A stretch of 64,000 nucleotides of DNA from Gautieria morchelliformis (lineage: Eukaryota; Basidiomycota; Agaricomycetes; Gomphales; Gomphaceae): NCBI GenBank assembly GCA_015179125.1, contig WHVA01000532.1:1-64000 (forward strand). The letters are read 5' to 3'. Positions within the stretch are counted from its first letter, which is position 1. The number at the start of each line of letters is the position of its first letter. Under the pieces are notes generated by a model, which made no database searches, had not been told where the DNA came from, and worked only from the letters and a program-made list of their open reading frames with translations. Shown here piece by piece: positions 9,310-64,000 of the stretch. Position numbers and translations under genes: made by a program.

Positions 9310-9523
9310 TGTAAATAACCCGTGTATCTACATGTACATTAGTTATTACATAATCCCAGTGGGCCCCTTAGGGACCCACTGTATAGTTTATGCGTGGGAA
9401 CCGGCTAGCGGTCCCCATCGCATCTTACTCTTACCTGTCACTACGTAGCATTCAGAATACCACTCATTGGTCAAGTTCTGCAGTGCCCTTGTGATACAAG
9501 GTCCTAAGATCGACATCTTTACA
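9310..9523 (+). repeat. 3' LTR of element D (214 bp)
   Basis: It begins TGTAAATAACC and ends ATCTTTACA, giving 6-bp inverted termini TGTAAA/TTTACA. A polypurine tract precedes it and G1 integrase sequence starts at 9524. The short length is unusual beside the 430-1,030 bp LTRs elsewhere in the window. No second copy is present to test the boundaries. Confidence 0.75.
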
Positions 9524-14922: not shown

Positions 14923-14932
14923 AGACTTTTCT
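14923..14932 (-). other. self-priming primer-binding site of G1
   Basis: Just inside the 5' LTR the minus strand reads AGAAAAGTCT. This is the exact reverse complement of AGACTTTTCT at 15065-15074 within the LTR, which lies about 33 bp downstream of a TATAATA box (15101-15107). No TGG-type tRNA site is present. The same layout is found in G3. Confidence 0.7.
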
Positions 14933-14934
14933 GC

Positions 14935-15404
14935 TGTAAGGGCAACCCTGGCTAGTTGTGGAGATCACACTACCACACAACTGACAAGGGGGAATCCAAA
15001 GTATGTATAAATGAACAGAGTATACAAGAGAGGGGATTCTCACCTGACAAGGGGGAATCCAAAGAGAAAAGTCTAAGGACCCTCAATGTCAGCGAGCCCG
15101 TATTATACTACGCTGCACAGCCAGGGACAACACTTGGCACCCGCCATCAACCCTGCATCCTCCTGACCTCCCTGACCCTTGATTGACCCTTGATGCCACC
15201 TATCACATGAGCCGCTTGATTTCCGACACTGTTCCGAGAGTGGAAGTCGGAAATTGGAGTGGAAATGGCAAAGGAACAGAACTGGTGGGAGTTCTCCCAG
15301 AAGCGGAATCCTTTCCGAAAGTGGAGGCGGAGATGGAATCGGAATGGTGTCGGAACTGGGTGTGGTGTCGGAACTGGAAATGGAGAACAGGGTGTTCCCT
15401 GACA
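14935..15404 (-). repeat. 5' LTR of chromovirus G1 (470 bp)
   Basis: On the minus strand it begins TGTCAGGGAACACC and ends GGGTTGCCCTTACA. It is homologous to the LTRs at 54359-54811 and 58665-59154. The U3 part is rich in CGGAA-type repeats. A TATAATA box and a predicted transcript start AGACTTTTCT follow. The flank at 15405-15409 is GCTGC; the partner flank is not in the window. Confidence 0.9.
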
Positions 15405-31511: not shown

Positions 31512-31937
31512 TGTTGGGTGCATTTATGCTCCTGCACCAAAATCAAGCCAAATAGATTCCACCATTCGTATTTCTTTTGATTTTGACTTGAAACCATGCT
31601 GACATTCATTCTATGATTTGTCAAATTTTTCTTTGATTTTTCGAAGCTGTATTTCTACTTCTTTTCATGTTCTGTCCAACCGACCCTTTGTGGGTGGTTG
31701 TGGACAGGTTTCCTTTTTGAGGTGCGGCTGTTCACTACCGTGCTACGTTCTATGGGCGCTTAGCATGGCATACGGTGGTACCACGGGCGCTAAAGCGCCG
31801 GCTAGTAGTACATGCGCATGAGACACATTTCCCCCCTCTCTCAGTGACAACTAAATTCACTGAGAGAGTGAATTAATTTCTAGTCTTCTTTTGAGCACCA
31901 AGTCTGGACCTACTGCCTATAATTCCTGTCCTCTACA
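31512..31937 (+). repeat. 5' LTR of copia A (426 bp)
   Basis: Begins TGTTGGGTGCATTT and ends CCTGTCCTCTACA. It contains a 12-bp stem, 9-nt loop hairpin at 31836-31868 (CTCTCTCAGTGA and its complement). Near-identical to 52934-53359. Confidence 0.95.
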
Positions 31938-35609: not shown

Positions 35610-36097
35610 TGTTGGGTGCATTTATGCTCCTGCACCAAAATCAAGCATAATATATTCACTTTATTGTGTGGTGTTTCAATATTTTCTCATACTGTTCTTG
35701 TACCATGCATCCATTTCTCTGCTTATTTTCGAAATTTTCTAGTCACTCTCTATCTCTCCATTTCATTCTGTTATTTCTACTTTTACAGGCGGCTGCACCC
35801 AGCGGAGTTTGAAACGACTTCGACGCGCGAGCCCTTGGGCGCTAAAGGGCCGGGTGCAAGTATATGCCTTCTGAGACAGGATTACACTCCTCTCTCAGTG
35901 ACAATAAATTCACTGAGAGAGGCGAGTAGTATCTTTCATATTTACATAGCATGTTGACTGAAAATCATGTAGTATATTTGATTCTAGGTACTGTATTAAT
36001 ACATCAGTGACAATAAATTCACTGAGAGAGTATATTTGATTCTAGCTTTCTAAGAACTCTACCGAACCTTCCCTGCCATAGCCCCTAGTTGCTAACA
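35610..36097 (+). repeat. 5' LTR of copia B (488 bp)
   Basis: Begins TGTTGGGTGCATTT and ends CCCCTAGTTGCTAACA. It has a 13-bp-stem hairpin at 35889-35922 and a second, shorter copy of the same palindrome at 36004-36025. The duplicated block (CAGTGACAATAAATTCACTG) distinguishes the B type from the A type. Confidence 0.96.
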
Positions 36098-36098
36098 A

Positions 36099-36111
36099 GG
36101 GTTATGGGCCC
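36099..36111 (+). other. primer-binding site of copia B, overlapping the gag start
   Basis: GGGTTATGGGCCC lies one base inside the LTR, as in A, with the gag ATG at 36104-36106 within it. The same complementarity to the initiator tRNA-Met anticodon arm applies. Confidence 0.8.
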
Positions 36112-39100
36112 CGCAGACACTTCGCAGAAGCTTTTGGGTGTGGAGAAGCTTGCAACAGATGGAAGTAATTGGCCTCTGTGGCGAGCTACTCTCACAAGTT
36201 ATTTTGAGTCCAAAAATCTACTCAGGCATATAGAAGGGAGAGCCATTCGACCTCCTGATCCTCCAGTCATGCCCCCAGGCCATATTCTCACAGAAGCTGA
36301 GGAAACTCAGATAGAGAAGGCTGAGGAGAAGCTGGAGAAATATCTTGCCAGAGAAGGACAGGCCAAAACCCAAATAATCGTCTCAGTGTCAGAGTCACTA
36401 GCTCTGATGCTACAGAAGAGACATACAGCAAAAGAAGTCTGGGATGCATTGGTCAATGAGATGACCAAAAAGCCCAAGATGGTCCTCACCAACCTACAGA
36501 GACAGCTTCGCAGTATGAGGTGTCCTGAGGATGGAGACTTGAGAGATCACTTGGACAAGGCCCAAGACCTCTATGCTCGTCTCAATGAGATGGGAGCCAG
36601 AATTTCTGAAGGAGAGTTCACCGACATTATCCTTGCATCACTTCCACCCTCCTATGAGGCAGTTATGAATGCCCTTACCACGTCGCTCGAAGAATGTGGA
36701 ATGCCCTTAGTGCCTGATGATATTATCAGAGTACTAAAGGCTCAATATGACAGGAGAAAGACCCTCAATATTTCACAAGAAGAGCAGGCATTTATTGGTT
36801 CATCTACGAAAGGGCAGAAGGGCCGGAAAGACCCGAAGGTGCCTGCATGCACTAATTGCCACAAGCCTGGACATGCTATAGAGAGTTGCTGGGCTAAAGG
36901 AGGTGGTAAAGAAGGCCAGGGGCCACGTCAGAAGAAGAAAGCGAAAGCCAAAAAGAAGAAGGGCAAAGCCAAGGCGAATGTTGCCGAAGAAGTGTCCTCT
37001 GAGGAGGATGAGAGTGGCAGTCCAGCCGCTTTCGCCAACTTCGACTGCTCTAATTTGAGTAGTTTATCTCTGGACACTGTTGTTATCCTCGACACTGGAA
37101 CGACCGCACATATGACCCCTCACAAGAATTTATTGAGGGATTACAGTCCATTCTCACAGCCGCGCACAATTCGTGCAGCCAACAAAGGCACTTTTGATGC
37201 CTTCGGTTCAGGCTCACTCGTGCTATCTAACAAGGTTGGAGATAAGACTGTGAACATTACATTGAAGGATACGTTCTACGCGCCAAAAATGGCTGTTACC
37301 CTCATCTCGATCGGCCGGTGCGATGATGCAGGCTATAACACACAAATAGCTGATCAGAAATGCACAATATCCAATCGTAAAGGCAGGATATTGATGCAAG
37401 CACCGAAGCTGAATGGCTTATATCGATTTGATTTACAACACACAAGTGCCGAAGCGCATGTATGCGCATCAGCCATGGAAATACATCAAAAAATGGGGCA
37501 CATTTCACAAAAGTCCCTACAGCACTTGCTCAACCGTGGCATGATATTAGGCATTGAATTGAGCTCAAAAGGTGACAAGGTTGTTTGCGATGCGTGCATT
37601 CAGGCGAAGATTGCACGTAAATCACTTCCTCAGGAACCCAGAAGCCGATCATCAAAATTCGGTGACAGAATTTATTCTGATGTCTGGGGACCAGCGAGAC
37701 ACTCCACAATTGACAAGAAATCCTATTATGTGTCTTTCATTGACGACTACTCAAGAGAATCGGTTATCTATTTGATGGCAAACAAATCGGAAGCATTTTC
37801 AAAATACAAACTCTACGAGGCCTTGATGCTTCGACAGAGGAATATGCACATCAAAGCACTTGTTTCCGACAGAGGGGGCGAATACACAAGCTCAGAATTT
37901 GAACAGCATTTGGCCAAGCAAGGCACGAAGCATCGGTTAACCGTGCACGACACCCCAGAGTCAAATGGTGTTGCTGAACGTTTAAACCGAACTCTAGTTG
38001 AAAGAGCTCGTGCCATGCTATTGGAATCAAGTCTTCCTAAGACTTATGGGGGCATGCAATTTTGCACGCCAACTATCTTAGGAATCGGACACATACAAGA
38101 GCTTTGCCAGACAAAACCCCTTTTGAAATGATCCATCACGAGAAACCGAACCTGAAAGACATACACGTGTGGGGAATTGAAGTCTACGTTAAAGTCAAAG
38201 AGGGAAACAAACTAGCAGCCCGTGCCAAAAGAGCTCGGTGGATAGGAATCTCTGGACAGAGCCATGGTCACTGCATCTACTGGCCTGACTCTCAGAAGGT
38301 TTCTGTCGAGCGGAATGTTATATTTGACTCAGAGATGAAGGGGGGCAAAGCTCCAATCATTTCTATTGAAGAGTCACAGCTACCTACGTCCAGAAAAATG
38401 GTACAGGCCATCTCGGCGCCAGCACCTATGCCTAGCCGCTTAGTCAGCGAAGAGGCAAAGATCGAGGAAATTGATGATGATGAACCAGAGGAACGTCTGA
38501 AAGAGCTGCAACCCAGTCAGACTGTTGATGCCAGACCTAAAGAAGCTGCTCCAACAAGGAGAAGCGAGAGAATCCGTCAGCAGCAGGTGCAGCCGGCCCC
38601 AAGTGGTCCCGTAACAAGATCTCAAACCAAGAGACATGCTGGTGCAGATATCACTACACTAGCTTAGGAGGACATTGAGGACCATCAAGACAAATTATTC
38701 GAACAAGATTTATCCTCTGTCACTGACGGCATCAGTGATTATAACCTTGCCATCAGTACACTTTCGACCTCCGATCAAAACAAAGATAATGTGCTGCCGG
38801 ATTTAAATCAGACCGAGCCTAGCAATGCAGATGAAGCCTTAAATGATCCTATGTGGAAAGCATCGATGGATAAAGAGTATAAGGTGCTACTCGACAAAGG
38901 TGTATGGGAAGTGGTTAAACCACCTCCTGGGGCAAATATTGTCGGAAATAGATGGGTATTCCTCTGGAAACGCAATCCAGAAGGTGAACCCATTACACCC
39001 AGATCGAGGATGGTCGCCCAAGGCTTTACACAAAGTTTTGGAGTCGACTACAATGAAACCTATGCACCTGTTGCTCGGATGACTTCCTTACGGATTATAT

Positions 39101-40353
39101 GTGCCATTGCTGCCAGGAACAACTGGCCTATTCACCAAATGGATGTGGACAGTGCGTATTTGAATGCTACACTGCCAGAACCTATTTACATGAGACAGCC
39201 GTATGGATATGAGACCGGAGACAAAGATGATGTCCTCCTGCTGAAGAAAGCACTTTACGGCCTCAAACAGTCTGGAAGGGAATGGTACAAACGTCTGAGT
39301 GGTGAATTTCTCAAGTTAGGATTCACTAAATCAGCTTCGGATGGAGCTGTATTTTGCAGACGTGGACCGAGAGGGCATGCGATTATTGCAACGGCGGTGG
39401 ACGACCTCACTATCACAGCTGAGAGTCAACCAATCCTCGATGAGGTAAAGCATGATCTTGCCCAGGTTTTTAGTATGAAAGACCTAGGCGAGATTCACTG
39501 GCTTTTGAACCTCAAAATCGAAAGAGATTGGAATAACAAATCGATTGCAATATCACAAGCCACATACATCCAGAAAATCATCAAAAAATTCAATCTGGAT
39601 GATGCCAAAACATTTTCCACGCCTCTCGACCCAGCCGTTAAATTATCCAGGGACCAATGCCCTTCCACAGATGAAGACAAACAGAAGATGTCAAGAATTC
39701 CATACAGACAAGCGATAGGATCATTGATGTGGGCAGCAGTAGCCACTCGACCGGACATTGCGTTCGCAGTGTCATTACTTTCTCAATTCCTCGAAAACCC
39801 AGGTCCAACACATTGGCATGCAGTCAAACGTGTCTTTAAATATCTAAAAGGCACGATGGACTACAAATTGACACTTGGGAAGAATCGAGACGGCCTCATT
39901 GGGTATTCAGATGCGTATTGGGCTTCTCAAGAGCACAGGCACTCATACTCGGCTTATATTTTTCAGATTGATGGTGGGACAGTATCATGGAGTTGTCAAA
40001 AACAATCCATAGTAGCCCTATCATCAACTGAAGCCGAATTCGTTGCTCTGACTCATGCGAGCAAAGAAGCCTTATGGATGCGCCACTTTATTTCTGAAGT
40101 ATTCCAACCGCTGAATTGTCCCATCAAACTTTATTCAGACAATCAATCAGCCATTGCCATCGTCTATGGCACTCAACAACACACGAGGACCAAGCATTTC
40201 GACATTAGATTATATTTCATCCGAGATATAGTCGAAGATGAAGAAATTAAGCTTGTGTACCTACCAACGGAACACATGCTAGCCGATCTTCTCACTAAAG
40301 GACTTCCTAGTCCTAGAGTGAGAATCCTCAACGAGAAAATCGGAATATATTAA
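36104..40353 (+). pseudogene. copia B gag-pol with one frameshift and one stop
   Basis: From ATG 36104: gag with CCHC CTNCHKPGHAIESC (about 36850), protease VVILDTGTTAHMTPH, integrase YSDVWGP...VSDRGGEYTS...NGVAERLNRTL. At about 38045, where A reads PKILWGYAIQHANY, one base is missing and the frame moves. A second frame carries the integrase end and linker to TAG 38665-38667, where A has TAT (Tyr). Reading then continues in that same frame, with the next in-frame start codon at 38791, through RT (LLKKALYGLKQSGREWYKRL, TAVDDLTI active site about 39400) and RNase H (STEAEFVALT, LADLLTKGLPSPR) to TAA 40351-40353. Everything else is intact, so only two lesions separate it from a complete polyprotein. 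Confidence 0.95.
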
Positions 40354-40355
40354 GC

Positions 40356-40366
40356 TTGAGGGGGCG
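40356..40366 (+). other. polypurine tract of copia B
   Basis: TTGAGGGGGCG directly before the 3' LTR; the same sequence precedes the A 3' LTR at 52923-52933. Confidence 0.75.
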
Positions 40367-40854
40367 TGTTGGGTGCATTTATGCTCCTGCACCAAAATCA
40401 AGCATAATATATTCACTTTATTGTGTGGTGTTTCAATATTTTCTCATACTGTTCTTGTACCATGCATCCATTTCTCTGCTTATTTTCGAAATTTTCTAGT
40501 CACTCTCTATCTCTCCATTTCATTCTGTTATTTCTACTTTTACAGGCGGCTGCACCCAGCGGAGTTTGAAACGACTTCGACGCGCGAGCCCTTGGGCGCT
40601 AAAGGGCCGGGTGCAAGTATATGCCTTCTGAGACAGGATTACACTCCTCTCTCAGTGACAATAAATTCACTGAGAGAGGCGAGTAGTATCTTTCATATTT
40701 ACATAGCATGTTGACTGAAAATCATGTAGTATATTTGATTCTAGGTACTGTATTAATACATCAGTGACAATAAATTCACTGAGAGAGTATATTTGATTCT
40801 AGCTTTCTAAGAACTCTACCGAACCTTCCCTGCCATAGCCCCTAGTTGCTAACA
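40367..40854 (+). repeat. 3' LTR of copia B (488 bp)
   Basis: Same length and, by eye, same sequence as 35610-36097. Followed by ATATT. Confidence 0.96.
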
Positions 40855-40949
40855 ATATTCCCTCCCAAATCCCATCGAATAGTATCAGTCCGATTGTTTT
40901 GATTGAAAATCGAACCTGTGCAATACACCTGCACAAACATCAAGGCCAA

Positions 40950-54358: not shown

Positions 54359-54811
54359 TGTAAGGGCAACCCTGGCTAGTTGTGGAGATCACACTACCAC
54401 ACAACTGACAAGGGGAAATCCAAAGTATGTATAAATGAACAGAGTATACAAGAGAGGGGATTCTCACCTGACAAGGGGAAATCCAAAGAGAAAAGTCTAA
54501 GGACCCCCAATGTCAGCGAGCCCGTATTATACTACGCTGCGCAGCAAGGGACAACACTTGGCACCTGCCATCAACCCTGCATCCCCCTGACCTCCCTGAC
54601 CCTTGATTGACCCTTGATGCCACCCATTACATGAGTCGCTTGATTTCCGACACTGTTCCGAGAGTGGAACTGGCAAGGCAAACAGAACTGGTGGAAGTTC
54701 TCCCAGGAGCGGAATCATTTCTGAAAGCGGAGGCGGAGATGGAATCGGAACCGGAACCGGAGTCGGAAATGGAGTCGGAACTGGAAATGGAAAACAGGGT
54801 GTCCCCTGACA
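54359..54811 (-). repeat. 3' LTR of chromovirus G2 (453 bp)
   Basis: Minus-strand start TGTCAGGGGACACC, end TTGCCCTTACA. Shorter than the G3 LTR (490 bp), mainly in the CGGAA-type repeat tract. The predicted transcript-start motif AGACTTTTCT is at 54489-54498. Confidence 0.93.
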
Positions 54812-54823
54812 TCACCCCCCTCT
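54812..54823 (-). other. polypurine tract of G2 within the pol C-terminus
   Basis: Minus-strand AGAGGGGGGTGA encodes the last codons and stop of pol and touches the LTR, so the polypurine tract is coding. Confidence 0.75.
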
Positions 54824-57800
54824 AGCATGCTGCATCCTCGAAGCACGGGACACGAGGGATTGAAATGCCAGTGAGCGGATTCGGCGAGGGGCACCGGGGT
54901 GTGTCCTATAGAACTCGCGGAGTTTGTCTGGAGTGGAGACATCTTGCTCCGGGACCCACGAATTCTCCTCATACCCATACCCTTCCCATTTCACAAGGAA
55001 TTGGAGTCGTCCTCGCACAAACCGGCTGTCCAGGATCCGTTCCACCACATAGTGCTCTTCCCGATCTACAATTTCCGGCGGAGGTGGCGGACAAACCTTC
55101 CGACCTGGAATTGGGTCCTCAAGCGTAGGGAGTAACTTCACCACGTTGAAGACGGGGTGGAGGCGGGACATGGACATCGGAAGTCGGAGGCGGTATGCAT
55201 TCCGTCCAACCCTCTGCATCACTGTGAAGGGCCCAAGGTAGCAGTGGGCAAGCTTCTGCGAAGGGCGTGTGGTGCGGATGTCACTTGCATCTAGATACAC
55301 CTTGTCTCCAACTTGGTACTCCGGGGCAGGAACCCGGCGTTGGTTGTAGTACCTTGCCATGTCATCCTTGGCCTTCGCAAGGGCCGACTTGGCTTCCGAA
55401 AGGGTGGAGTCCATGCGGTCTCGGAACTCATTGACCGTCTTGAGTCGGGACTCAGCCTGGCACGGTTCAAAGCCCATCCGCGGGTGTTGTCCGGAGTCAA
55501 GCATGAAGGGAGTCTGTTGTGTGGCGGAATGTACATGGTTGTTGTATTGGAATTCCGCCAGTGGAAGTAACTCATCCCAGTCATCCTGCCTCTCATTGAC
55601 AAAGAGGCGGAGATATTGCTCCAACTCCTGATTGACCCGTTCCGTCTGTCCATCGCCCTGTGGATGGTATGCTGTGGTGGTAGCCAGCTTTATGCCAAGC
55701 AGGCGGTAGAGTTCCCAAGTCAGTTCTGCGACAAACTGCGGACCTCGGTCGGAAACGACTTGCTTCGGGAGCCCATGCAACTTCCAGACATGTGCAAGGA
55801 CCAGGCGGGCCGCTCCGAGGGCTGTGATCATCGTGTGCATCGGAATGAAGTGGGACACCTTGCCTACCGAGTCCACGACGTTCATGATAGCGTCGTAGCC
55901 ATGAGACTCTGGGAGTTCAACGATGAAGTCGACACTGATGGTGTCCCAGCGGGATTCGGGAATCAGGAGTGGAACAAGTTCTCCGACAGGCAGATGTTGT
56001 TGCGCTTTGGTTCGGAGACAAAGGTGACATGTCTTTACGTACTGTCCAATGTAGCGGGACATCTGAGGCCACCAGTAGTTCCGAGCCACTAACTCCAGCA
56101 TCTTCCACCTGCCAGCATGCCCAGCGACCCGTGTGTCATGGTGCTGGGACACAATGCGGCCGCGGAGGTCCGCCCCACATGGAACATAGACCTTGCCTCT
56201 GAAGTGGAGCAGCCCATCACGTTCTGACCATTCCGCTGCCCATACAGACCGTGAGTGCCCTTTCCGAAGTTCCTCCACCGCCTTCACCACCGACACCTCC
56301 TTCTCTCCATTCCGGTACTGCCTCCGGATGTCCCGGAGCATTTCCGCTTCCGCCCCAACTGCAGTCACTCCTTCGAGGGCGCGGATTGCAAAGAGACTTG
56401 GGCGGAGTAGTGTCATATCAGCGTTGTCTCCACTTCCGCTTCCATGATCCGCACGGCGGGATAGGGCATCGGGCTTGCCCATGGTGCGGCCGGGGCGGTG
56501 GTGGAGCATGAAGTCGAACTGGGACAGGTGTAGGGACCACCGTGCTTGGCATCGGTTCAACTTCTTTGACGTGCGGAAGTACTCGAGGTTCTTGTGGTCT
56601 GTCCAGATCTCAAATGGGCATGGGGCACCCTCGAGGAAGTGTCGCCACTCCTCCAGCGCTCGGATGATTGCCAGCATCTCCTTGTCATGGATCTCATAGT
56701 TCCGCTCGACCGGACTAAGGCTTTTAGAGAAAAAGGCAATCGGATGCCACCGCCCACCATCTTCCGATGACTGTTGTGACAAGACTGCTCCGGTAGCTGT
56801 GTCGGAAGAATCCGCCTCGACTCGATAAGGGCGAGGGTCGTCGGGAAAGATCAGGACCGGGGCAGAAGTGATCAGCTCCTTGAGTTTGTCAAAGGAGGCC
56901 TGTTCCGGCTCTCCCCACCGCCACCCAACCTCCTTCTTGGTGAGGTCGAAGAGGGCATGGGCGTGGCAGGAGAAGTCCTTGATGAACCGCCGGTAGAAAT
57001 TGACAAACCCAATGAAGGACTGGACCTCCTTCTTGTTCCGGGGCACAGGCCAATCCGATACACCGGAAACTTTGACTGGGTCCATTTCCACCTTTCCCTC
57101 CGACACAATCACCCCAAGATACTCTATCCGCGTCCACTCAAATTCGCACTTTTCCAGCTTGAGACACAGGTTGTATTCCCGGAGCCGTTCCAGCACTCTC
57201 CGCACGACTTCCCGATGTTCGGGCATTGTTTTTGTGAAGATGAGGATGTCATCGAGGTAGACACAGACAACCCCTTCTGCTATCATGTCACGGAAAATGT
57301 CATTCATCATCGTCTGGAATGTGGCGGGACTGTTGGTGAGGCCGAAGAACATGACCTGTGGCTCAAAGAGTCCTCGGTTGGTGCGGAATGTGGCCTTCCA
57401 CTCGTCTCCCTCCCGGATCCAAAGATTATTGAAGCCCCAGCGGACATCCAGCTTAGTGAAGTACCTCGCCCCACGGAGTTGTGTGATCAGTTCGGAAATG
57501 AGTGGAATGGGGTACCGGTTCTTGATCGTGATCGCATTCAAGGCCTGGTAATCCTGCACAAGTCTGAGCGAGCCGTCCTTCTTCTTAATGAAGAACACCG
57601 GAGATGCCATGGGTGACTTGGAGGGGCGGATCCTCCCTGTATGGAGGTTTTCCGCAAGGAATGCATTGAGCTCTACCTGCTCCTTGGGTGACAGCCGGTA
57701 GACCTTGCAGTTGGTGGGCTTTGACCCAGGCTCCAACTCGATGGCATGGTGCCACAGCTTTCGTGGAGGCAGGGCATCAAATGACTCCTTGGCAAAGACA

Positions 57801-58660
57801 TCCTCGAACTCCCGCAGGTACTCCGGAATTTCCACCTCCGCTTTATCATGCTTTTTGGAGGCTTCAGCAAGGCGTTGCGAAATGTTTCCGGTGGCGCGGA
57901 TGTGTTCCGCTTCCGGTGGAAGGTTTACATACAGCAAGCGCTCCCCCTCCGCCAGAGTGTCTTCCAGGCCGAGTCGGATGACGTCAGAATCGGAATCGGA
58001 ATCGGAATCGGAAGTGGGATCCGGTTCAAATTCCGCTTCCGAGTCTTCTTCTGCAAGCAGTGGATGGGGGCCAGAACGACATGTCTGTATGAGCTGTTCG
58101 GTCTTCCGCTGCTCCTGGCGCTCCTTCCACACTTCCGACCGGCACATGTGACACTTGGCTGGGCATCTACTCATCAGTACCTTCCGAGTCTGCCAATTGA
58201 TCTCCGGGTTGTGCTCCTGAAGCCAGGTAAACCCAAGGATGATGTCTTGCTTCCCCAGACTGGTGACTGCAAAGGAAGTGCATTCTGTGTGTCCATCGTA
58301 GCGGAGAATTGTGTCTACTATCTCCGTGATGGACCCTGCCTCATTGGGGCTTCCATCCACATTGAACACCGGGATTGCACGTTGCAACTTCCGCGTAGTC
58401 AGTCGGTTCCGTTCCACATAGTCCCGGTCCATAAACTGACCAGTGGCCCCGCAATCGACAAGGGCGGGTCCGGATTTGACTTCCGCCGTATCTGTCGTCT
58501 GGATCTCCACCTTAATGACTAGTGACTTGGGGCCCGGGGTGGCAGCAACAACATAGCGCTTCGGGAGGCATCTCTCCCAAGGGCGGATGCAAGATGGATG
58601 GGGTGTTGGATCTGGTTTTTGTGTGACTTTATCCGGTGGGTCTGTACGAAGTGAGGGGAG
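54812..58660 (-). CDS. pol polyprotein of chromovirus G2 (PR-RT-RNase H-INT-chromodomain)
   Basis: Continuous frame with no ATG near its start: GTG 58510, open upstream to the G3 junction. This suits expression by fusion or frameshift from gag. Counting from 58510: protease VDCGATGQF (residue 18), RT VYLDDILIF (YLDD 418-421), RNase H EADSSDTATGAV, integrase HHCC finger, then D861 (SVDF), D921 (SDRGPQF) and E957 (GQTE), a correct D-x35-E. The C-terminal chromodomain at about 1155-1195 (YVVERILDSR...LVKWEGYGYEENSWVPEQ) would bind modified histone tails and steer insertion to heterochromatin. All catalytic residues look intact. The stop TGA (54812-54814) directly abuts the LTR. Confidence 0.93.
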   Translation of the reverse strand, partial: LPSLRTDPPDKVTQKPDPTPHPSCIRPWERCLPKRYVVAATPGPKSLVIKVEIQTTDTAEVKSGPALVDCGATGQFMDRDYVERNRLTTRKLQRAIPVFNVDGSPNEAGSITEIVDTILRYDGHTECTSFAVTSLGKQDIILGFTWLQEHNPEINWQTRKVLMSRCPAKCHMCRSEVWKERQEQRKTEQLIQTCRSGPHPLLAEEDSEAEFEPDPTSDSDSDSDSDVIRLGLEDTLAEGERLLYVNLPPEAEHIRATGNISQRLAEASKKHDKAEVEIPEYLREFEDVFAKESFDALPPRKLWHHAIELEPGSKPTNCKVYRLSPKEQVELNAFLAENLHTGRIRPSKSPMASPVFFIKKKDGSLRLVQDYQALNAITIKNRYPIPLISELITQLRGARYFTKLDVRWGFNNLWIREGDEWKATFRTNRGLFEPQVMFFGLTNSPATFQTMMNDIFRDMIAEGVVCVYLDDILIFTKTMPEHREVVRRVLERLREYNLCLKLEKCEFEWTRIEYLGVIVSEGKVEMDPVKVSGVSDWPVPRNKKEVQSFIGFVNFYRRFIKDFSCHAHALFDLTKKEVGWRWGEPEQASFDKLKELITSAPVLIFPDDPRPYRVEADSSDTATGAVLSQQSSEDGGRWHPIAFFSKSLSPVERNYEIHDKEMLAIIRALEEWRHFLEGAPCPFEIWTDHKNLEYFRTSKKLNRCQARWSLHLSQFDFMLHHRPGRTMGKPDALSRRADHGSGSGDNADMTLLRPSLFAIRALEGVTAVGAEAEMLRDIRRQYRNGEKEVSVVKAVEELRKGHSRSVWAAEWSERDGLLHFRGKVYVPCGADLRGRIVSQHHDTRVAGHAGRWKMLELVARNYWWPQMSRYIGQYVKTCHLCLRTKAQQHLPVGELVPLLIPESRWDTISVDFIVELPESHGYDAIMNVVDSVGKVSHFIPMHTMITALGAARLVLAHVWKLHGLPKQVVSDRGPQFVAELTWELYRLLGIKLATTTAYHPQGDGQTERVNQELEQYLRLFVNERQDDWDELLPLAEFQYNNHVHSATQQTPFMLDSGQHPRMGFEPCQAESRLKTVNEFRDRMDSTLSEAKSALAKAKDDMARYYNQRRVPAPEYQVGDKVYLDASDIRTTRPSQKLAHCYLGPFTVMQRVGRNAYRLRLPMSMSRLHPVFNVVKLLPTLEDPIPGRKVCPPPPPEIVDREEHYVVERILDSRFVRGRLQFLVKWEGYGYEENSWVPEQDVSTPDKLREFYRTHPGAPRRIRSLAFQSLVSRASRMQHARGG

Positions 58661-58664
58661 TGGG

Positions 58665-59154
58665 TGTCAGGGGACACCCTGTTTTCCATTTCCAGTTCCG
58701 ACACCACACCCAGTTCCGACTCCATTTCCGACTCCGCTTCCAGTTCCGATTCCATCTCCGCCTCCGCTATCGGAAATGATTCCACTCCTGGGAGAACTTC
58801 CACCAGTTCTGTTTGCCTTGCCAGTTCCACTCCAATTTCTGACTTCCACTCTCGAAACAGTGTTGGAAATCAAGCGACTCGCGTAATAGGTGGCATCAAG
58901 GGTCAATCAAGGGTCAGGGAGGTCAGGGGGATGCAGGGTTGATGGCAGGTGCCAAGTGTTGTCCCTTGCTGCGCAGCGTAGTATAATACGGGCTCGCTGA
59001 CATTGGGGGTCCTTAGACTTTTCTCTTTGGATTTCCCCTTGTCAGGTGAGAATCCCCTCTCTTGTATACTCTGTTCATTTATACATACTTTGGATTTCCC
59101 CTTGTCAGTTGTGTGGTAGTGTGATCTCCACAACCAGCCAGGGTTGCCCTTACA
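58665..59154 (+). repeat. 5' LTR of chromovirus G3 (490 bp)
   Basis: Starts TGTCAGGGGACACC and ends GGGTTGCCCTTACA. U3 is rich in TTCCGA-type repeats (58690-58770). Confidence 0.94.
58982..58988 (+). promoter_or_regulatory. TATA box of the G3 LTR
   Basis: TATAATA lies 33 bp before AGACTTTTCT (59015-59024), the proposed transcript start. The same spacing holds in the G1 LTR (15107 to 15074). Confidence 0.6.
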
Positions 59155-59156
59155 GC

Positions 59157-59166
59157 AGAAAAGTCT
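59157..59166 (+). other. self-priming primer-binding site of G3
   Basis: AGAAAAGTCT, two bases inside the LTR, is the exact reverse complement of 59015-59024 in the LTR. No tRNA-type site is present. This fits Tf1/sushi-type self-priming by the RNA 5' end. Confidence 0.72.
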
Positions 59167-59341
59167 CTCCCCTAGAGGACCGGTGGTCGTACGGCGCGTT
59201 GCATTCGCCATAGGTGCGTTCGGAATCGGAGACAGCGACTCGGAGATCGCAACCTCTTCCGCACACACAGCGTACGACAGCCCCTCTTCTTACGTCGAGC
59301 TCCCAACCCCGGAAATCCCGTCCCATATTTCTCCTTCCGAC

Positions 59342-60594
59342 ATGGATCCGGACGATCGTCTTCGGAATATGGAGGAGGAATTGACGTGGAACCAGATGAA
59401 GACCGAGGCGATTGAAACAGCCTTACAAGGGATTTTGGCTAAGTTAGATATTCCACAAAGTGGTGGAAATGAAATGCTGGATGATCCGGATTTTGGAAAA
59501 GCAGAAGCAGCGGAAGAGAGGATGTCGGCGAAGTTAGCAAAGGTCAAATCCGCAACTCCGGCGGACTTTGACGGAGATCGGGAGAAGGGACGCGCATTCT
59601 TCAACACATGCAGCATCTACTTCGCAATTGTCGGAGACCTCTTTCCGAACGACCAGGCTCGGATTCACTGGGCATTGTCCTTTTTCAAGTCGGACCGCGC
59701 AGCCCATTTTGCAAACAAGGTGATCCGACATGAAGCGAAGGGCAAGGGGAACTACTTCCGGGACTGGGACGCCTTCGAGAAAACATTTTCCGACCAGTTC
59801 TGCCCGAAAAACGAGCAGCTCACAGCCCTTACGAAGCTCAAGGGGACAAGCTGGTACCAGGCCAAGGATCCGGTCGATGACTACATCGATCAGACTACAT
59901 CGATCACTTCCAGGAGCTCATTGACCTTGCGGAGTATGACGACGACAAGACGATCGTCATCAAATTCCGACGAGGACTTGATCTGACACTCCAGAACCAA
60001 GTCGCGCTGCTTGGGGATGGAGCTCCGGATTTTGATGACCCGGAAGGGTGGTACCAAGCTGCGCAGAGGGTGTCCCAGAACAGGGAAGCGAATGAGGCCT
60101 TCGTGGAGACAAACCGGAACGTGACACGCAGTTCCACTCGTCCTACTCCACCTATGCCAAAACTCGGAAGTGCATTCACTCCCACACGGAAAATATTTCC
60201 GACGGTTGCTCCGCCTGCTCCGATTAGGAACCATAGCCCTCCTCCTTCGAAGAGTGGCCCTGCCCCGATGGATGTTGACTGCATGCGTGGAAAAGGCCAC
60301 GGAACTATCACCTGCTTCCAATGTCGACAACCAGGCCACTATGCTCGCGAGTGCCCCCAAGCCTTTGATATCCGGCTTATGACCACGGAGGAGAAACTCG
60401 AGCTCCTTCCAGAGTTCCTCGCACTCACGGACATAGGCGGAGTGCCCACTGCGGAAGTAATTTCCGAAAATGCGGAACATGGTGCATCGGGGCGCGGAAG
60501 ATGCGTCGGATTTTGTGACACGCAGCGGGTGAGATGTGTGCCTCTGCTGCCTGTACATACCCGGTTTGCCTGTCTTGAAGTAGATAGAGAATAA
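59342..60594 (+). pseudogene. gag of chromovirus G3, frameshifted by a 14-bp tandem duplication
   Basis: First ATG 59342. The capsid region is as in G1 (TPADFDGDREKGRAFFNTC). At 59879-59906 the 14-bp unit GACTACATCGATCA occurs twice where G1 has it once, shifting the frame. The shifted frame carries the rest, including the knuckle CFQCRQPGHYAREC near 60315. Near 60490 an extra base relative to G1 moves the end of gag into what is the pol phase in G1, and it stops at 60592. Non-functional. Confidence 0.9.
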
Positions 60595-60739
60595 AAAGCC
60601 CCCGCTCCCCTCACTTCATACAGACCCACCGGATAAAGTCACACAAAAACCGAATCCGACACCCCGTCCATCCCGCGTCCGCCCTTGGGAGAGACGCCTC
60701 CCGAAGCGCTATGTTGTTGCTTCCACCCCTGGCCCCAAG

Positions 60740-63700
60740 TCACTAGTCATTAAGGTGGAGATCCAGACGACAGATACGGCGGAAGTCAAACCCGGACCTG
60801 CCCTTGTCGATTGCGGGGCCACTGGTCAGTTTATAGACCAGGACTATGTGGAACGGAACCGACTGACTACGCGGAAGTTGCAACGTGCAATCCCGGTGTT
60901 CAATGTGGATGGAAGCCCCAATGAGGCAGGGTCCATCACGGAGATAGTAGACACAATTCTCCGCTATGATGGGCACACAGAACGCACTTCCTTCGGAGTG
61001 ACCAGCCTGGGGAAGCAAGACATCATCCTTGGGTTTACCTGGCTTCAGGAGCACAACCCGGAGATCAATTGGCAGACTCGGAAGGTGCTGATGAGTCGGT
61101 GCCCAGCCAAGTGTCACATGTGCCGGTCGGAAATGCGGAAGGAGCGCCAGGAGCAGCGGAAGACCGAACGGCTCATACAGACATGTCGTTCTGGCCCCCA
61201 TCCACTGCTTGCAGAAGAAGACTCGGAAGCGGAATTTGAACCGGGTCCCACTTCCGATTCCGATTCTGATGTCATCAGACTCAGCCTGGAAGAGACTCTG
61301 GCGGAGGGGGAACGCTTGCTGTACGTAAACCTTCCACCGGAAGCAGAACACATCCGCGCCACCGGAAACATTTCGCAACGCCTTGCTGAAGCCTCCAAAA
61401 AGCATGATAAAGCGGAGGTGGAAATTCCGGAGTACCTGCGGGAGTTCGAGGATGTCTTTGCCAAGGAGTCATTTGATGCCCTGCCTCCACGAAAGCTGTG
61501 GCACCATGCCATCGAGTTGGAGCCTGGGTCAAAGCCCACCAACTGCAAGGTCTACCGGCTGTCACCCAAGGAGCAGGTAGAGCTCAATGCATTCCTTGCG
61601 GAAAACCTCTGTACAGGGAGGATACACCCCTCCAAGTCACCCATGGCATCTCCGGTGTTCTTCGTCAAGAAGAAGGACGGCTCGCTCAGGCTTGTGCAGG
61701 ACTACCGGGCCTTGAATGCGATCACGATCAAGAACTGATACCCCATTCCACTCATTTCCGAACTGATCACACAACTCCGCGGGGCGAGGTACTTCACTAA
61801 GCTGGATGTCCACTGGGGGTTCAATAATGTTCGGATCCGGGAGGCAGACGAGTGGAAGGCCGCATTCCGCACCAACCGAGGACTCTTTGAGCCACAGGTC
61901 ATGTTCTTCGGCCTCACCAACAGTCCCGCCACATTCCAGACGATGATGAATGACATTTTCCGTGACATGATAGCAGAAGGGGTTGTCTGTGTCTACCTCG
62001 ATGACATAGGTTGGGTGGCGGTGGGGAGAGCCGGAACAGGCCTCCTTTGACAAACTCAAGGAGCTGATCACTTCTGCCCCGGTCCTGATCTTTCCCGACG
62101 ACCCTCGCCCTTATCGAGTCGAGGCGGATTCTTCCGACACAGCTACCGGAGCAGTCTTGTCACAACAGTCATCGGAAGATGGTGGGCGGTGGCATCCGAT
62201 TGCCTTTTTCTCTAAAAGCCTTAGTCCGGTCGAGCGGAACTATGAGATCCATGACAAGGAGATGCTGGCAATCATCCGAGCGCTGGGGGAGTGGCGACAC
62301 TTCCTCGAGGGTGCCCCATGCCCATTTGAGATCTGGACAGGCCACAAGAACCTCGAGTACTTCCGCACGTCAAAGAAGTTGAACCGATGCCAAGCACGGT
62401 GGTCCCTACACCTGTCCCAGTTCGACTTCATGCTCCACCACCGCCCCGGCCGCACCATGGGCAAGCCCGATGCCCTATCCCGCCGTGCGGATCATGGAAG
62501 CGGAAGTGGAGACAACGCTGATATGACACTACTCCGCCCAAGTCTCTTTGCAATCCGCGCCCTCGAAGGAGTGACTGCAGTTGGGGCGGAAGCGGAAATG
62601 CTCCGGGACATCCGGAGGCAGTACCGGAATGGAGAGAAGGAGGTGTCGGTGGTGAAGTTCGGAAAGGGCACTCACGGTCTGTATGGGCAGCGGAATGGTC
62701 GGAACGTGATGGACTGCTCCACTTCAGAGGCAAGGTCTATGTTCCATGTGGGGCGGACCTCCGCGGCCGCATTGTGTCCCAGCACCATGACACACGGGTC
62801 GCTGGGCATGCTGGCAGGTGGAAGACGCTGGAGTTAGTGGCTCGGAATTACTGGTGGCCTCAGATGTCCCGCTACATTGGACAGTACGTGAACACATGCG
62901 ACCTTTGCCTCCGAACCAAAGCGCAACAACACTCGCCCGTCGGAGAACTTGTTCCGCTCCCAATTCCCGAATCCCGCTGGGACACCATCAGTGTCGACTT
63001 CATCGTTGAACTCCCAGAGTCTCATGGCTACGACGCGATCATGAACGTCGTGGATTTGGTAAGCAAGGTGTTCCACTTCATTCCAACACACACGACGATC
63101 ACAGCCCTCGGAGCGGCCCACCTGTTCCTTGCACATGTCTGGAAGTTGCATGGGCTCCCGAAGCAAGTCGTTTCCGACCGAGGTCCGCAGTTTGTCGCGG
63201 AACTGACTCGGGAGCTCTACCGCCTGCTCGGCATAAAGCTGGCCACCACCACAGCATACCATCCACAGGGTGACGGACAGACGGAAGGGGTCAATCAGGA
63301 GTTGGAGCAATATCTCCGCCTCTTTGTCAATGAGAGGCAGGATGACTGGGATGAGTTACTTCCACTGGCGGAATTCCAATACAACAACCATGTACATTCC
63401 GCCACACAACAGACTCCCTTCATGCTTGACTCCGGACAACACCCGCGGATGGGCTTTGAACCGTGCCAGGCTGAGTCCCGACTCAAGACGGTCAATGAGT
63501 TCCGAGACCGCATGGACTCCACCCTTTCGGAAGCCAAGTCGGCCCTTGCGAAGGCCAAGGATGACATGGCAAGGTACTACAACCAACGCCGGGTTCCTGC
63601 CCCGGAGTACCAAGTTGGAGACAAGGTGTATCTAGATGCAAGTGACATCCGCACCACACGCCCTTCGCAGAAGCTTGCCCACTGCTACCTTGGGCCCTTC

Positions 63701-64000
63701 ACAGTGATGCGGAGGGTTGGACGGAATGCATACCGCCTCCGACTTCCGATGTCCATGTCCCGCATCCACCCCGTCTTCAACGTGGTGAAGTTACTCCCTA
63801 CGCTTGAGGACCCAATTCCAGGTCGGAAGGTTTGTCCGCCACCTCCGCCGGAAATTGTAGATCGGGAAGAGCACTATGTGGTGGAACGGATCCTGGACAG
63901 CCGGTTTGTGCGAGGACGACTCCAATTCCTTGTGAAATGGGAAGGGTATGGGTATGAGGAGAATTCGTGGGTCCCGGAGCAAGATGTTTCCGCTCCAGAC
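60740..64000 (+). pseudogene. pol of chromovirus G3, several lesions
   Basis: Protease VDCGATGQF and the start of RT are open to TGA 61736-61738, where G1 and G2 have a CGG arginine codon. RT continues to YLDDI at about 62008, where about 310 bp (from after the active site to the RNase H boundary) are deleted relative to G2. RNase H follows in another frame, and near 62655 a 14-bp loss shifts the frame again. Integrase (DTISVDFIVELP, SDRGPQF, GDGQTEG) and chromodomain (FLVKWEGYGYEENSWVPEQ) are open to the window end. Confidence 0.9.

What the first reader, a model, noticed from the sequence alone, without database searches (positions are those of the whole stretch)
58982..59166. Tf1-like self-priming in a basidiomycete chromovirus
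The ten bases AGAAAAGTCT just inside the 5' LTR are the exact reverse complement of AGACTTTTCT in the LTR, and the latter sits 33 bp downstream of TATAATA, where transcription should begin. So the RNA 5' end could fold onto the primer site. No tRNA-type site is seen. The arrangement is conserved in G1 (14923-14932, 15065-15074, 15101-15107), and the LTR half is also present in G2. Self-priming is established for fission-yeast Tf1 and relatives.
Basis: partly seen in the sequence, partly recalled or inferred. Interest (0 to 1): 0.8.

Follow-up and report, generated by a model that had tools for sequence, protein, structure and literature searches.

The report
Self-priming fungal LTR retrotransposons
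A very abundant fungal jumping gene appears to start copying itself into DNA by folding the 5' tip of its own RNA onto a nearby site instead of borrowing a tRNA; this trick is known from fission yeast and relatives, and here sister families with different but still matching tips support it.

Summary
G1 and G2 share this. Genome-wide there are 651 window-type and 198 third-type pairs (controls 0) and 0 mixed window/second-type pairs. Against 30 of 47 tRNA genes the 3'-end match is at most 7 nt, while two copia elements in the window match a tRNA-Met over 15-16 nt. Eight leader RNAs are predicted to pair primer with site (P 0.82-0.96), but Tf1's flanking duplexes are not seen in the window family. 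Best explanation: Tf1-type self-primed reverse transcription, a known kind already proposed for basidiomycete Tcn1. RNA 5' end, cleavage and the basidiomycete label are untested.

The parts
58665..59154 (+). 5' LTR of element G3 (family A), TGTCAGGG...CCCTTACA, 490 bp; target-site duplicate GTGGG at 58660-58664, repeated after its 3' LTR (contig 64116-64541, beyond the window)
58982..58988 (+). TATAATA, presumed TATA box
   Evidence: motif only, not mapped
59015..59024 (+). self-primer AGACTTTTCT, predicted first 10 nt of the element RNA (start of R)
59025..59048 (+). direct repeat copy 1 in U5, directly after the primer (copy 2 at 59088-59111); only one unit remains in the 3' LTR
59157..59166 (+). 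primer-binding site AGAAAAGTCT, 2 nt after the LTR end
60313..60354 (+). Gag zinc knuckle CX2CX4HX4C of G3, read by eye from the DNA; G3's coding region is interrupted (separate frames; about 314 bp missing at 62007/62008 against G2)
60755..64000 (+). pol region of G3 in several frames, runs past the window; integrase zinc-binding, core (below Pfam's own cut-off only in G2), Tf2-type SH3 and chromodomain found in frame 62774-63998
14935..15404 (-). 5' LTR of element G1 (family A)
15101..15107 (-). TATA motif of G1
15065..15074 (-). self-primer of G1
14923..14932 (-). primer-binding site of G1
54359..54811 (-). 3' LTR of element G2 (family A); G3 is inserted in G2
54489..54498 (-). self-primer copy in the 3' LTR of G2
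54815..54823 (-). polypurine tract AGAGGGGGG of G2, followed by the TGA stop of pol and the 3' LTR
54812..58510 (-). uninterrupted pol frame of G2 (1232 aa): protease, reverse transcriptase, RNase H, integrase, chromodomain
36099..36114 (+). contrast, not part of the element: Ty1/copia site complementary to the anticodon arm of a tRNA-Met (16 nt)

Best explanation
The window carries three copies (two run past its end) of a chromodomain Ty3/gypsy LTR retrotransposon (family A) that starts reverse transcription by Tf1-type self-priming. Transcription starts at the A of AGACTTTTCT, 33 nt after the TATA box (inferred). The RNA's first 10 nt fold back about 140 nt onto the complementary site 2 nt past the 5' LTR (shown as sequence complementarity and predicted pairing). 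RNase H of the element's own reverse transcriptase cuts after about nt 10, and the released 3' OH primes minus-strand DNA into U5 (inferred from Tf1). The 2-nt gap leaves two extra bases past the terminal CA for integrase to trim (inferred). Two sister families in the genome use different, co-changed primer/site pairs in the same arrangement.
For: Exact pair at fixed geometry in 3 of 3 family-A 5' junctions held. Family B: pair AGCTTGATCT/AGATCAAGCT in 8 of 9 held 5' junctions. Family C: 12-nt pair in 2 of 3 held 5' junctions. Site offset after CA is exactly 2 nt in all three families and TATA-to-primer distance 32-35 nt. 7 of 10 aligned primer positions vary among families with matched change in the site. 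Pol identity A-B 54%, A-C 41%, B-C 38%. Genome-wide: 651 A pairs (control 0), 198 C pairs (control 0), 875 places for a degenerate A/B pattern (control 2), 0 mixed A/B pairs. Signature scan of 359,794 held bases at k of 10 or more: 17 hits, 13 of them these families, against 0-2 in 10 shuffled sets. Predicted primer:site pairing P 0.82-0.96 in 8 of 8 leaders folded, out of 13 intact pairs held. No TGG in the first 20 nt; longest match to the 3' ends of 30 tRNAs 6-7 nt and to whole tRNAs 6-8 nt, against 15-16 nt for two copia elements. Chromodomain and RNase H domains present in A, B and C.
Against: No RNA 5' end or cleavage is shown. The two flanking duplexes of the Tf1 'pretzel' do no better than shuffles in family A (189 to 261 of 300 shuffles as good), the upstream one does not in B or C, the downstream one is weak in B (55 and 49 of 300); only C's downstream one stands out (0 and 1 of 300). 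Only 30 of 47 detected tRNA genes were tested as primers. Family D and a further RT score class could not be tested. B locus L041 lost the primer part of its 5' LTR and L047 lacks the junction; in C locus L035 one LTR base differs, leaving 7 nt, which 98 of 2000 shuffles equal. At k = 9 alone the scan gave 1 further hit, no more than shuffles.
Confidence: 0.9

Rival explanations
1. Reverse transcription is primed by a host tRNA or a tRNA fragment, and the inverted decamers are incidental.
For: tRNA priming is the usual way (general knowledge); only 30 of 47 detected tRNA genes were available for the test. The best internal tRNA match in family C is 8 nt.
Against: No TGG near the LTR end; longest match to tRNA 3' ends 6-7 nt in A, B and C, while the same test finds 15-16 nt for two copia elements. 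It does not explain matched changes of LTR and site in three families.
Confidence: 0.04
2. The pair is an RNA or DNA hairpin with another role (packaging, translation control, termination), not the primer.
For: The leader folds well in the 8 leaders tested; other inverted repeats occur in the fetched loci.
Against: It does not explain why the downstream arm always starts exactly 2 nt past the LTR end and the upstream arm 32-35 nt after a TATA motif while the spacing between the arms ranges from 101 to 258 nt in intact pairs.
Confidence: 0.05
3. Chance complementarity copied many times by amplification of one family.
For: Copies within a family are close relatives, so 651 places are not 651 independent events.
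Against: Three families with different pairs are three separate observations; 17 signature hits against 0-2 in shuffles; 7 of 10 positions co-vary.
Confidence: 0.01

Closest known systems
Tf1/Tf2 of Schizosaccharomyces pombe
   Same: Chromodomain gypsy element; RNA 5' end complementary to the site next to the 5' LTR; no tRNA site. Tf1: first 11 bases pair with the site and RNase H cuts between bases 11 and 12 (PMC7175516, passages).
   Different: Primer sequence and length (10, 10 and 11-12 nt here); the flanking pretzel duplexes are not evident in family A; a Gag zinc knuckle is present in G3, absent in the fission-yeast elements (PMC10085805, passages).
Tcn1 of Cryptococcus neoformans (basidiomycete)
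   Same: Fungal chromovirus already proposed to self-prime (PMC7175516, passages, citing Goodwin and Poulter 2001, which is not held).
   Different: Sequence relationship not tested. Tcn2-5 of the same host were said to have possibly novel priming.
Tj1 of S. japonicus; Tosmo1-3 and Tcry1 of other fission yeasts
   Same: Self-primers inferred from sequence in Tf1/sushi elements; Tj1 is active (PMC4600332 and PMC10085805, passages).
   Different: Different host group; those elements form their own clade, and relation to families A-C was not tested.
marY1 of Tricholoma matsutake
   Same: An element listed in the chromovirus tree of PMC10085805 (figure legend).
   Different: Its priming was not seen in any passage read; relation to families A-C not tested.

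Membership tests
Tf1/sushi self-priming chromoviruses | Ty3/gypsy pol order with chromodomain at the integrase C terminus | tested here: met
   Family A frame 54812-58510 and family B (L045): RT, RNase H, integrase, chromodomain in one frame; family C (L037): the same over two frames. The family-D frame searched (L050) showed no chromodomain hit
Tf1/sushi self-priming chromoviruses | Site next to the 5' LTR complementary to an LTR segment | tested here: met
   10, 10 and 12 nt exact in A, B and C, offset 2 nt; one C copy (L035) is down to 7 nt
Tf1/sushi self-priming chromoviruses | That LTR segment is the 5' end of the RNA | not testable with these tools
   Only inferred from TATA spacing of 32-35 nt
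Tf1/sushi self-priming chromoviruses | No tRNA-type primer site | tested here: met
   30 of 47 tRNA genes tested; copia positive control found
Tf1/sushi self-priming chromoviruses | Three-duplex 'pretzel' leader | tested here: inconclusive
   Central duplex predicted in 8 of 8 leaders; flanking duplexes: none above shuffles in A, weak downstream one in B, strong downstream one in C
Tf1/sushi self-priming chromoviruses | RNase H cleavage releasing the primer | not testable with these tools
   RNase H domain present; cleavage needs RNA work
Tf1/sushi self-priming chromoviruses | Place inside the Tf1/sushi clade of an RT-integrase tree | not tested
   Reference sequences were not at hand; best solved relative is Ty3
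tRNA-primed chromoviruses | TGG-type site complementary to a tRNA 3' end | tested here: not met
   No TGG in the first 20 nt, at most 7 nt against 30 of 47 tRNA genes
Basidiomycete host | Host taxonomy | tested here: inconclusive
   An HSP60 frame from this genome scores 749 and 744 bits against two chains recalled to be fungal (named glomalin and a mitochondrial HSP60-like protein), 517 against the next, and 507 against chains named mitochondrial HSP60 and recalled to be mammalian: a fungus, phylum not resolved

The most novel reading that the evidence does not exclude
Self-primer sequence is a fast-evolving, family-specific 'address' in this genome: at least three co-resident chromovirus families keep an identical primer geometry while LTR segment and site are replaced in step, with no mixed pairs between A and B, possibly under selection against priming between families. 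Family A would do this with a simplified leader lacking the flanking duplexes that Tf1 needs.
Probability: 0.3. Interest if true: 0.5.

Novelty: new member of a known kind. Interest (0 to 1): 0.38.

Why it matters
It gives self-priming in a fungal chromovirus strong comparative support short of an RNA experiment: coupled change of primer and site in three families, hundreds of copies, and a working tRNA control in the same window. Tcn2-5 were described as possibly priming in novel ways (PMC7175516, passage), and a plant Tcn1-clade element as having no recognisable site (PMC2864245, passage). The simple signature used here (CA + 2 nt + complement of the segment 32-35 nt after a TATA motif) is an easy way to test such elements.

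Tried and rejected
Tried without result: viral-contig scan with the G2 pol protein gave no relative. Family D (L032, L033, L050, L051; 26-40% identical to A over the longer matched stretches) showed no LTR pair within about 10 kb, so its priming is untested. A further RT score class with 1257-aa frames (whether it is a separate family is not established) could not be fetched. A Pfam scan of 10 open frames beside tRNA genes did not place the host. The extra signature hit in L040 at 1242/1388 and the one at 9477 were left as probable chance, the two L034 hits at 2223 as a long inverted repeat; all four stay in the 17 counted. The separate genome-wide count of family-B pairs never came back, so the 224 places left after subtracting 651 from 875 are only presumed mostly B. 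In one search two of the eight sequences tested were flanks of copia 3' LTRs, not primer sites; they gave 6-7 nt and are not used. Considered and rejected: tRNA priming, a non-priming hairpin, chance (see rivals).

Dropped before the junction counts: L042 (family A without its 5' end), family C loci L037, L038 and L044 (no 5' junction held; only primer-like LTR copies seen) and B locus L047 (no 5' junction). B locus L041 is counted as a miss.

Full report
What is there. The two decamers are present at the stated coordinates and are exact reverse complements. Comparing copies fixes the anatomy. Element G3 has a 490-bp 5' LTR (58665-59154, TGTCAGGG...TTACA), target-site duplicate GTGGG, and its 3' LTR at 64116-64541 of the same contig, beyond the window. 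G3 lies inside element G2, whose 5' LTR and site are also just past the window end (site 65961-65970). G1 is a third copy on the minus strand. All three 5' junctions read CA + GC + AGAAAAGTCT, and all three LTRs carry AGACTTTTCT 33 nt after a TATA motif. In shuffles of the 40 nt after the LTR, so long a complement turned up in 3, 5 and 1 of 2000 trials for G3, G2 and G1, in 4 of 2000 for each of three B copies, and in 0 and 1 of 2000 for two C copies; the decayed C copy L035 (7 nt) was equalled in 98 of 2000.

What the element is. G2 has an uninterrupted 1232-aa pol frame with protease, reverse transcriptase, RNase H, integrase, a Tf2-type SH3 domain and a chromodomain; its best solved relative by sequence is Ty3. 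It is a chromovirus of very high copy number: a DNA search had 1897 first-look candidates and scored 40, all at 98-100%. The assembly is 122 Mb in 1113 contigs. The host is a fungus by its HSP60 (the organisms of the solved chains are recalled, not given by the tool); 'basidiomycete' was not established.

Covariation test. Searching the genome for integrase zinc-binding domains gave 150 scored matches; I chose 40 places and 20 of them were fetched. The 20 loci are: family B, 10 (pol 54% identical to A); family C, 5 (41%); family A, 1 (L042); family D, 4. Family B carries AGCTTGATCT in the LTR and AGATCAAGCT at CA + 2 nt in 8 of 9 held 5' junctions; L041 keeps the site but has lost the primer part of its 5' LTR, and L047 shows no junction. 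Family C carries CAGTCTGAAAAT and ATTTTCAGACTG, 12 nt, in L034 and in a copy in L001; L035 has one changed LTR base. Aligned from the predicted first base (A in all three), 7 of 10 positions vary among the families and each change is matched on the other side; A, G and T at positions 1, 2 and 5 are fixed. The spacing between the arms of intact pairs ranges from 101 to 258 nt, while the two anchors (2 nt after CA, 32-35 nt after TATA) hardly move.

Genome-wide counts. The exact A pair at 131-161 nt spacing occurs at 651 places (reversed-pattern control 0), the C pair at 231-261 nt at 198 (control 0), a degenerate pattern covering A and B at 875 (control 2), and A primer with B site, in either order, at 0. 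Pairs at other spacings, such as L036, are not counted. These are related copies, so the numbers show retention, not independent events. The C places include loci beside uninterrupted 1249-aa pol frames (for example on C157 and C182). A scan of all 359,794 bases held at that point for CA + 2 nt + a 10-mer whose complement lies 50-400 nt upstream and 26-42 nt after TATA gave 17 hits, 13 of them families A, B and C, against 0-2 in 10 shuffled sets; at k = 9 alone there was 1 more hit, no excess over shuffles.

tRNA control. 30 of 47 detected tRNA genes were compared with the first 25 nt after the LTR. A, B and C match tRNA 3' ends over at most 6-7 nt and whole tRNAs over at most 8, with no TGG in the first 20 nt. 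Two Ty1/copia elements in the same window match the anticodon arm of one tRNA-Met (taken to be the initiator, by recall) over 15 and 16 nt, the half-tRNA type of priming described for some copia lineages (PMC6317226, passage). The same copia LTRs show no self-complement above chance. This is a within-window contrast.

RNA structure. In 8 of 8 leaders folded (3 A, 3 B, 2 C, out of 13 intact pairs held) the primer:site helix forms with mean pair probability 0.82-0.96; no shuffled control was run for that number. Tf1 needs two further duplexes beside the central one (PMC10085805, passages). In family C a downstream-flank duplex is strong (0 and 1 of 300 shuffles as good), in B weak (55 and 49 of 300), and in A neither flank exceeds shuffles; the upstream duplex exceeds shuffles in no family. 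So the central duplex is well supported, while the full 'pretzel' is not shown for the window family.

Mechanism. Shown: complementarity, geometry, co-change, predicted pairing, lack of a site for the tRNAs tested, presence of RNase H. Inferred from Tf1: transcription start at the primer's first A, RNase H cut after about nt 10 (Tf1: between 11 and 12, PMC7175516, passage), extension into U5, and two extra bases beyond CA removed by integrase.

Known or new. Self-priming is described as a common feature of Tf1/sushi chromoviruses (PMC10085805, passages). It was already proposed for Tcn1 of the basidiomycete C. neoformans, whereas Tcn2-5 were thought to prime in possibly novel ways (PMC7175516, passages). 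It is predicted for the majority of plant Tcn1-clade elements (PMC6317226, passages), although an earlier paper found no sign of it in one of them (PMC2864245, passages). Seven library searches (listings seen, passages read in six of the listed papers) showed me no report of coupled primer/site replacement among sister families of one genome, but most subscription papers, including the original Tcn paper, are not held. The finding is therefore a new member of a known kind with better than usual support.

Noticed in passing
window 35610-40855 and 31512-31937 (sites from 36099 and 31938): Ty1/copia elements whose primer site is complementary over 15-16 nt to the anticodon arm of a tRNA-Met (half-tRNA priming), in the same window as self-priming gypsy elements.
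   Followed up: yes
window 59025-59111 and contig 64116-64541 (L001): A 24-nt direct repeat in U5 (96%, 63 nt apart) is present twice in G3's 5' LTR but once in its 3' LTR, as if recombined or slipped.
   Followed up: partly
window 54359-58664, 58665-64000 and L001: Nested insertions: G3 sits inside G2 (TSD GTGGG), and the sequence next to G2's 3' LTR looks like copia integrase coding sequence (by eye).
   Followed up: partly
L032 8951-8963/9092-9104 and L050 (reverse-complemented) 8950-8962/9091-9103: Family D carries a 13-nt inverted repeat in its 3' part whose arms differ between copies but stay complementary (AGGAATATTTGAA against AGGAATATTCTAA).
   Followed up: no
L044 301-312/438-449; also L033, L035, L037, L045: A 12-nt inverted repeat CTCTCTCAGTGA/TCACTGAGAGAG recurs in several fetched loci, probably in copia-type LTRs.
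   Followed up: no
L034 about 2175-2433 (locus coordinates): A cluster of inverted repeats (up to 32 nt) in an AT-rich stretch, possibly a small hairpin-type element.
   Followed up: no
L002-L031: Many of the tRNA genes found are predicted to have introns of varied length.
   Followed up: no
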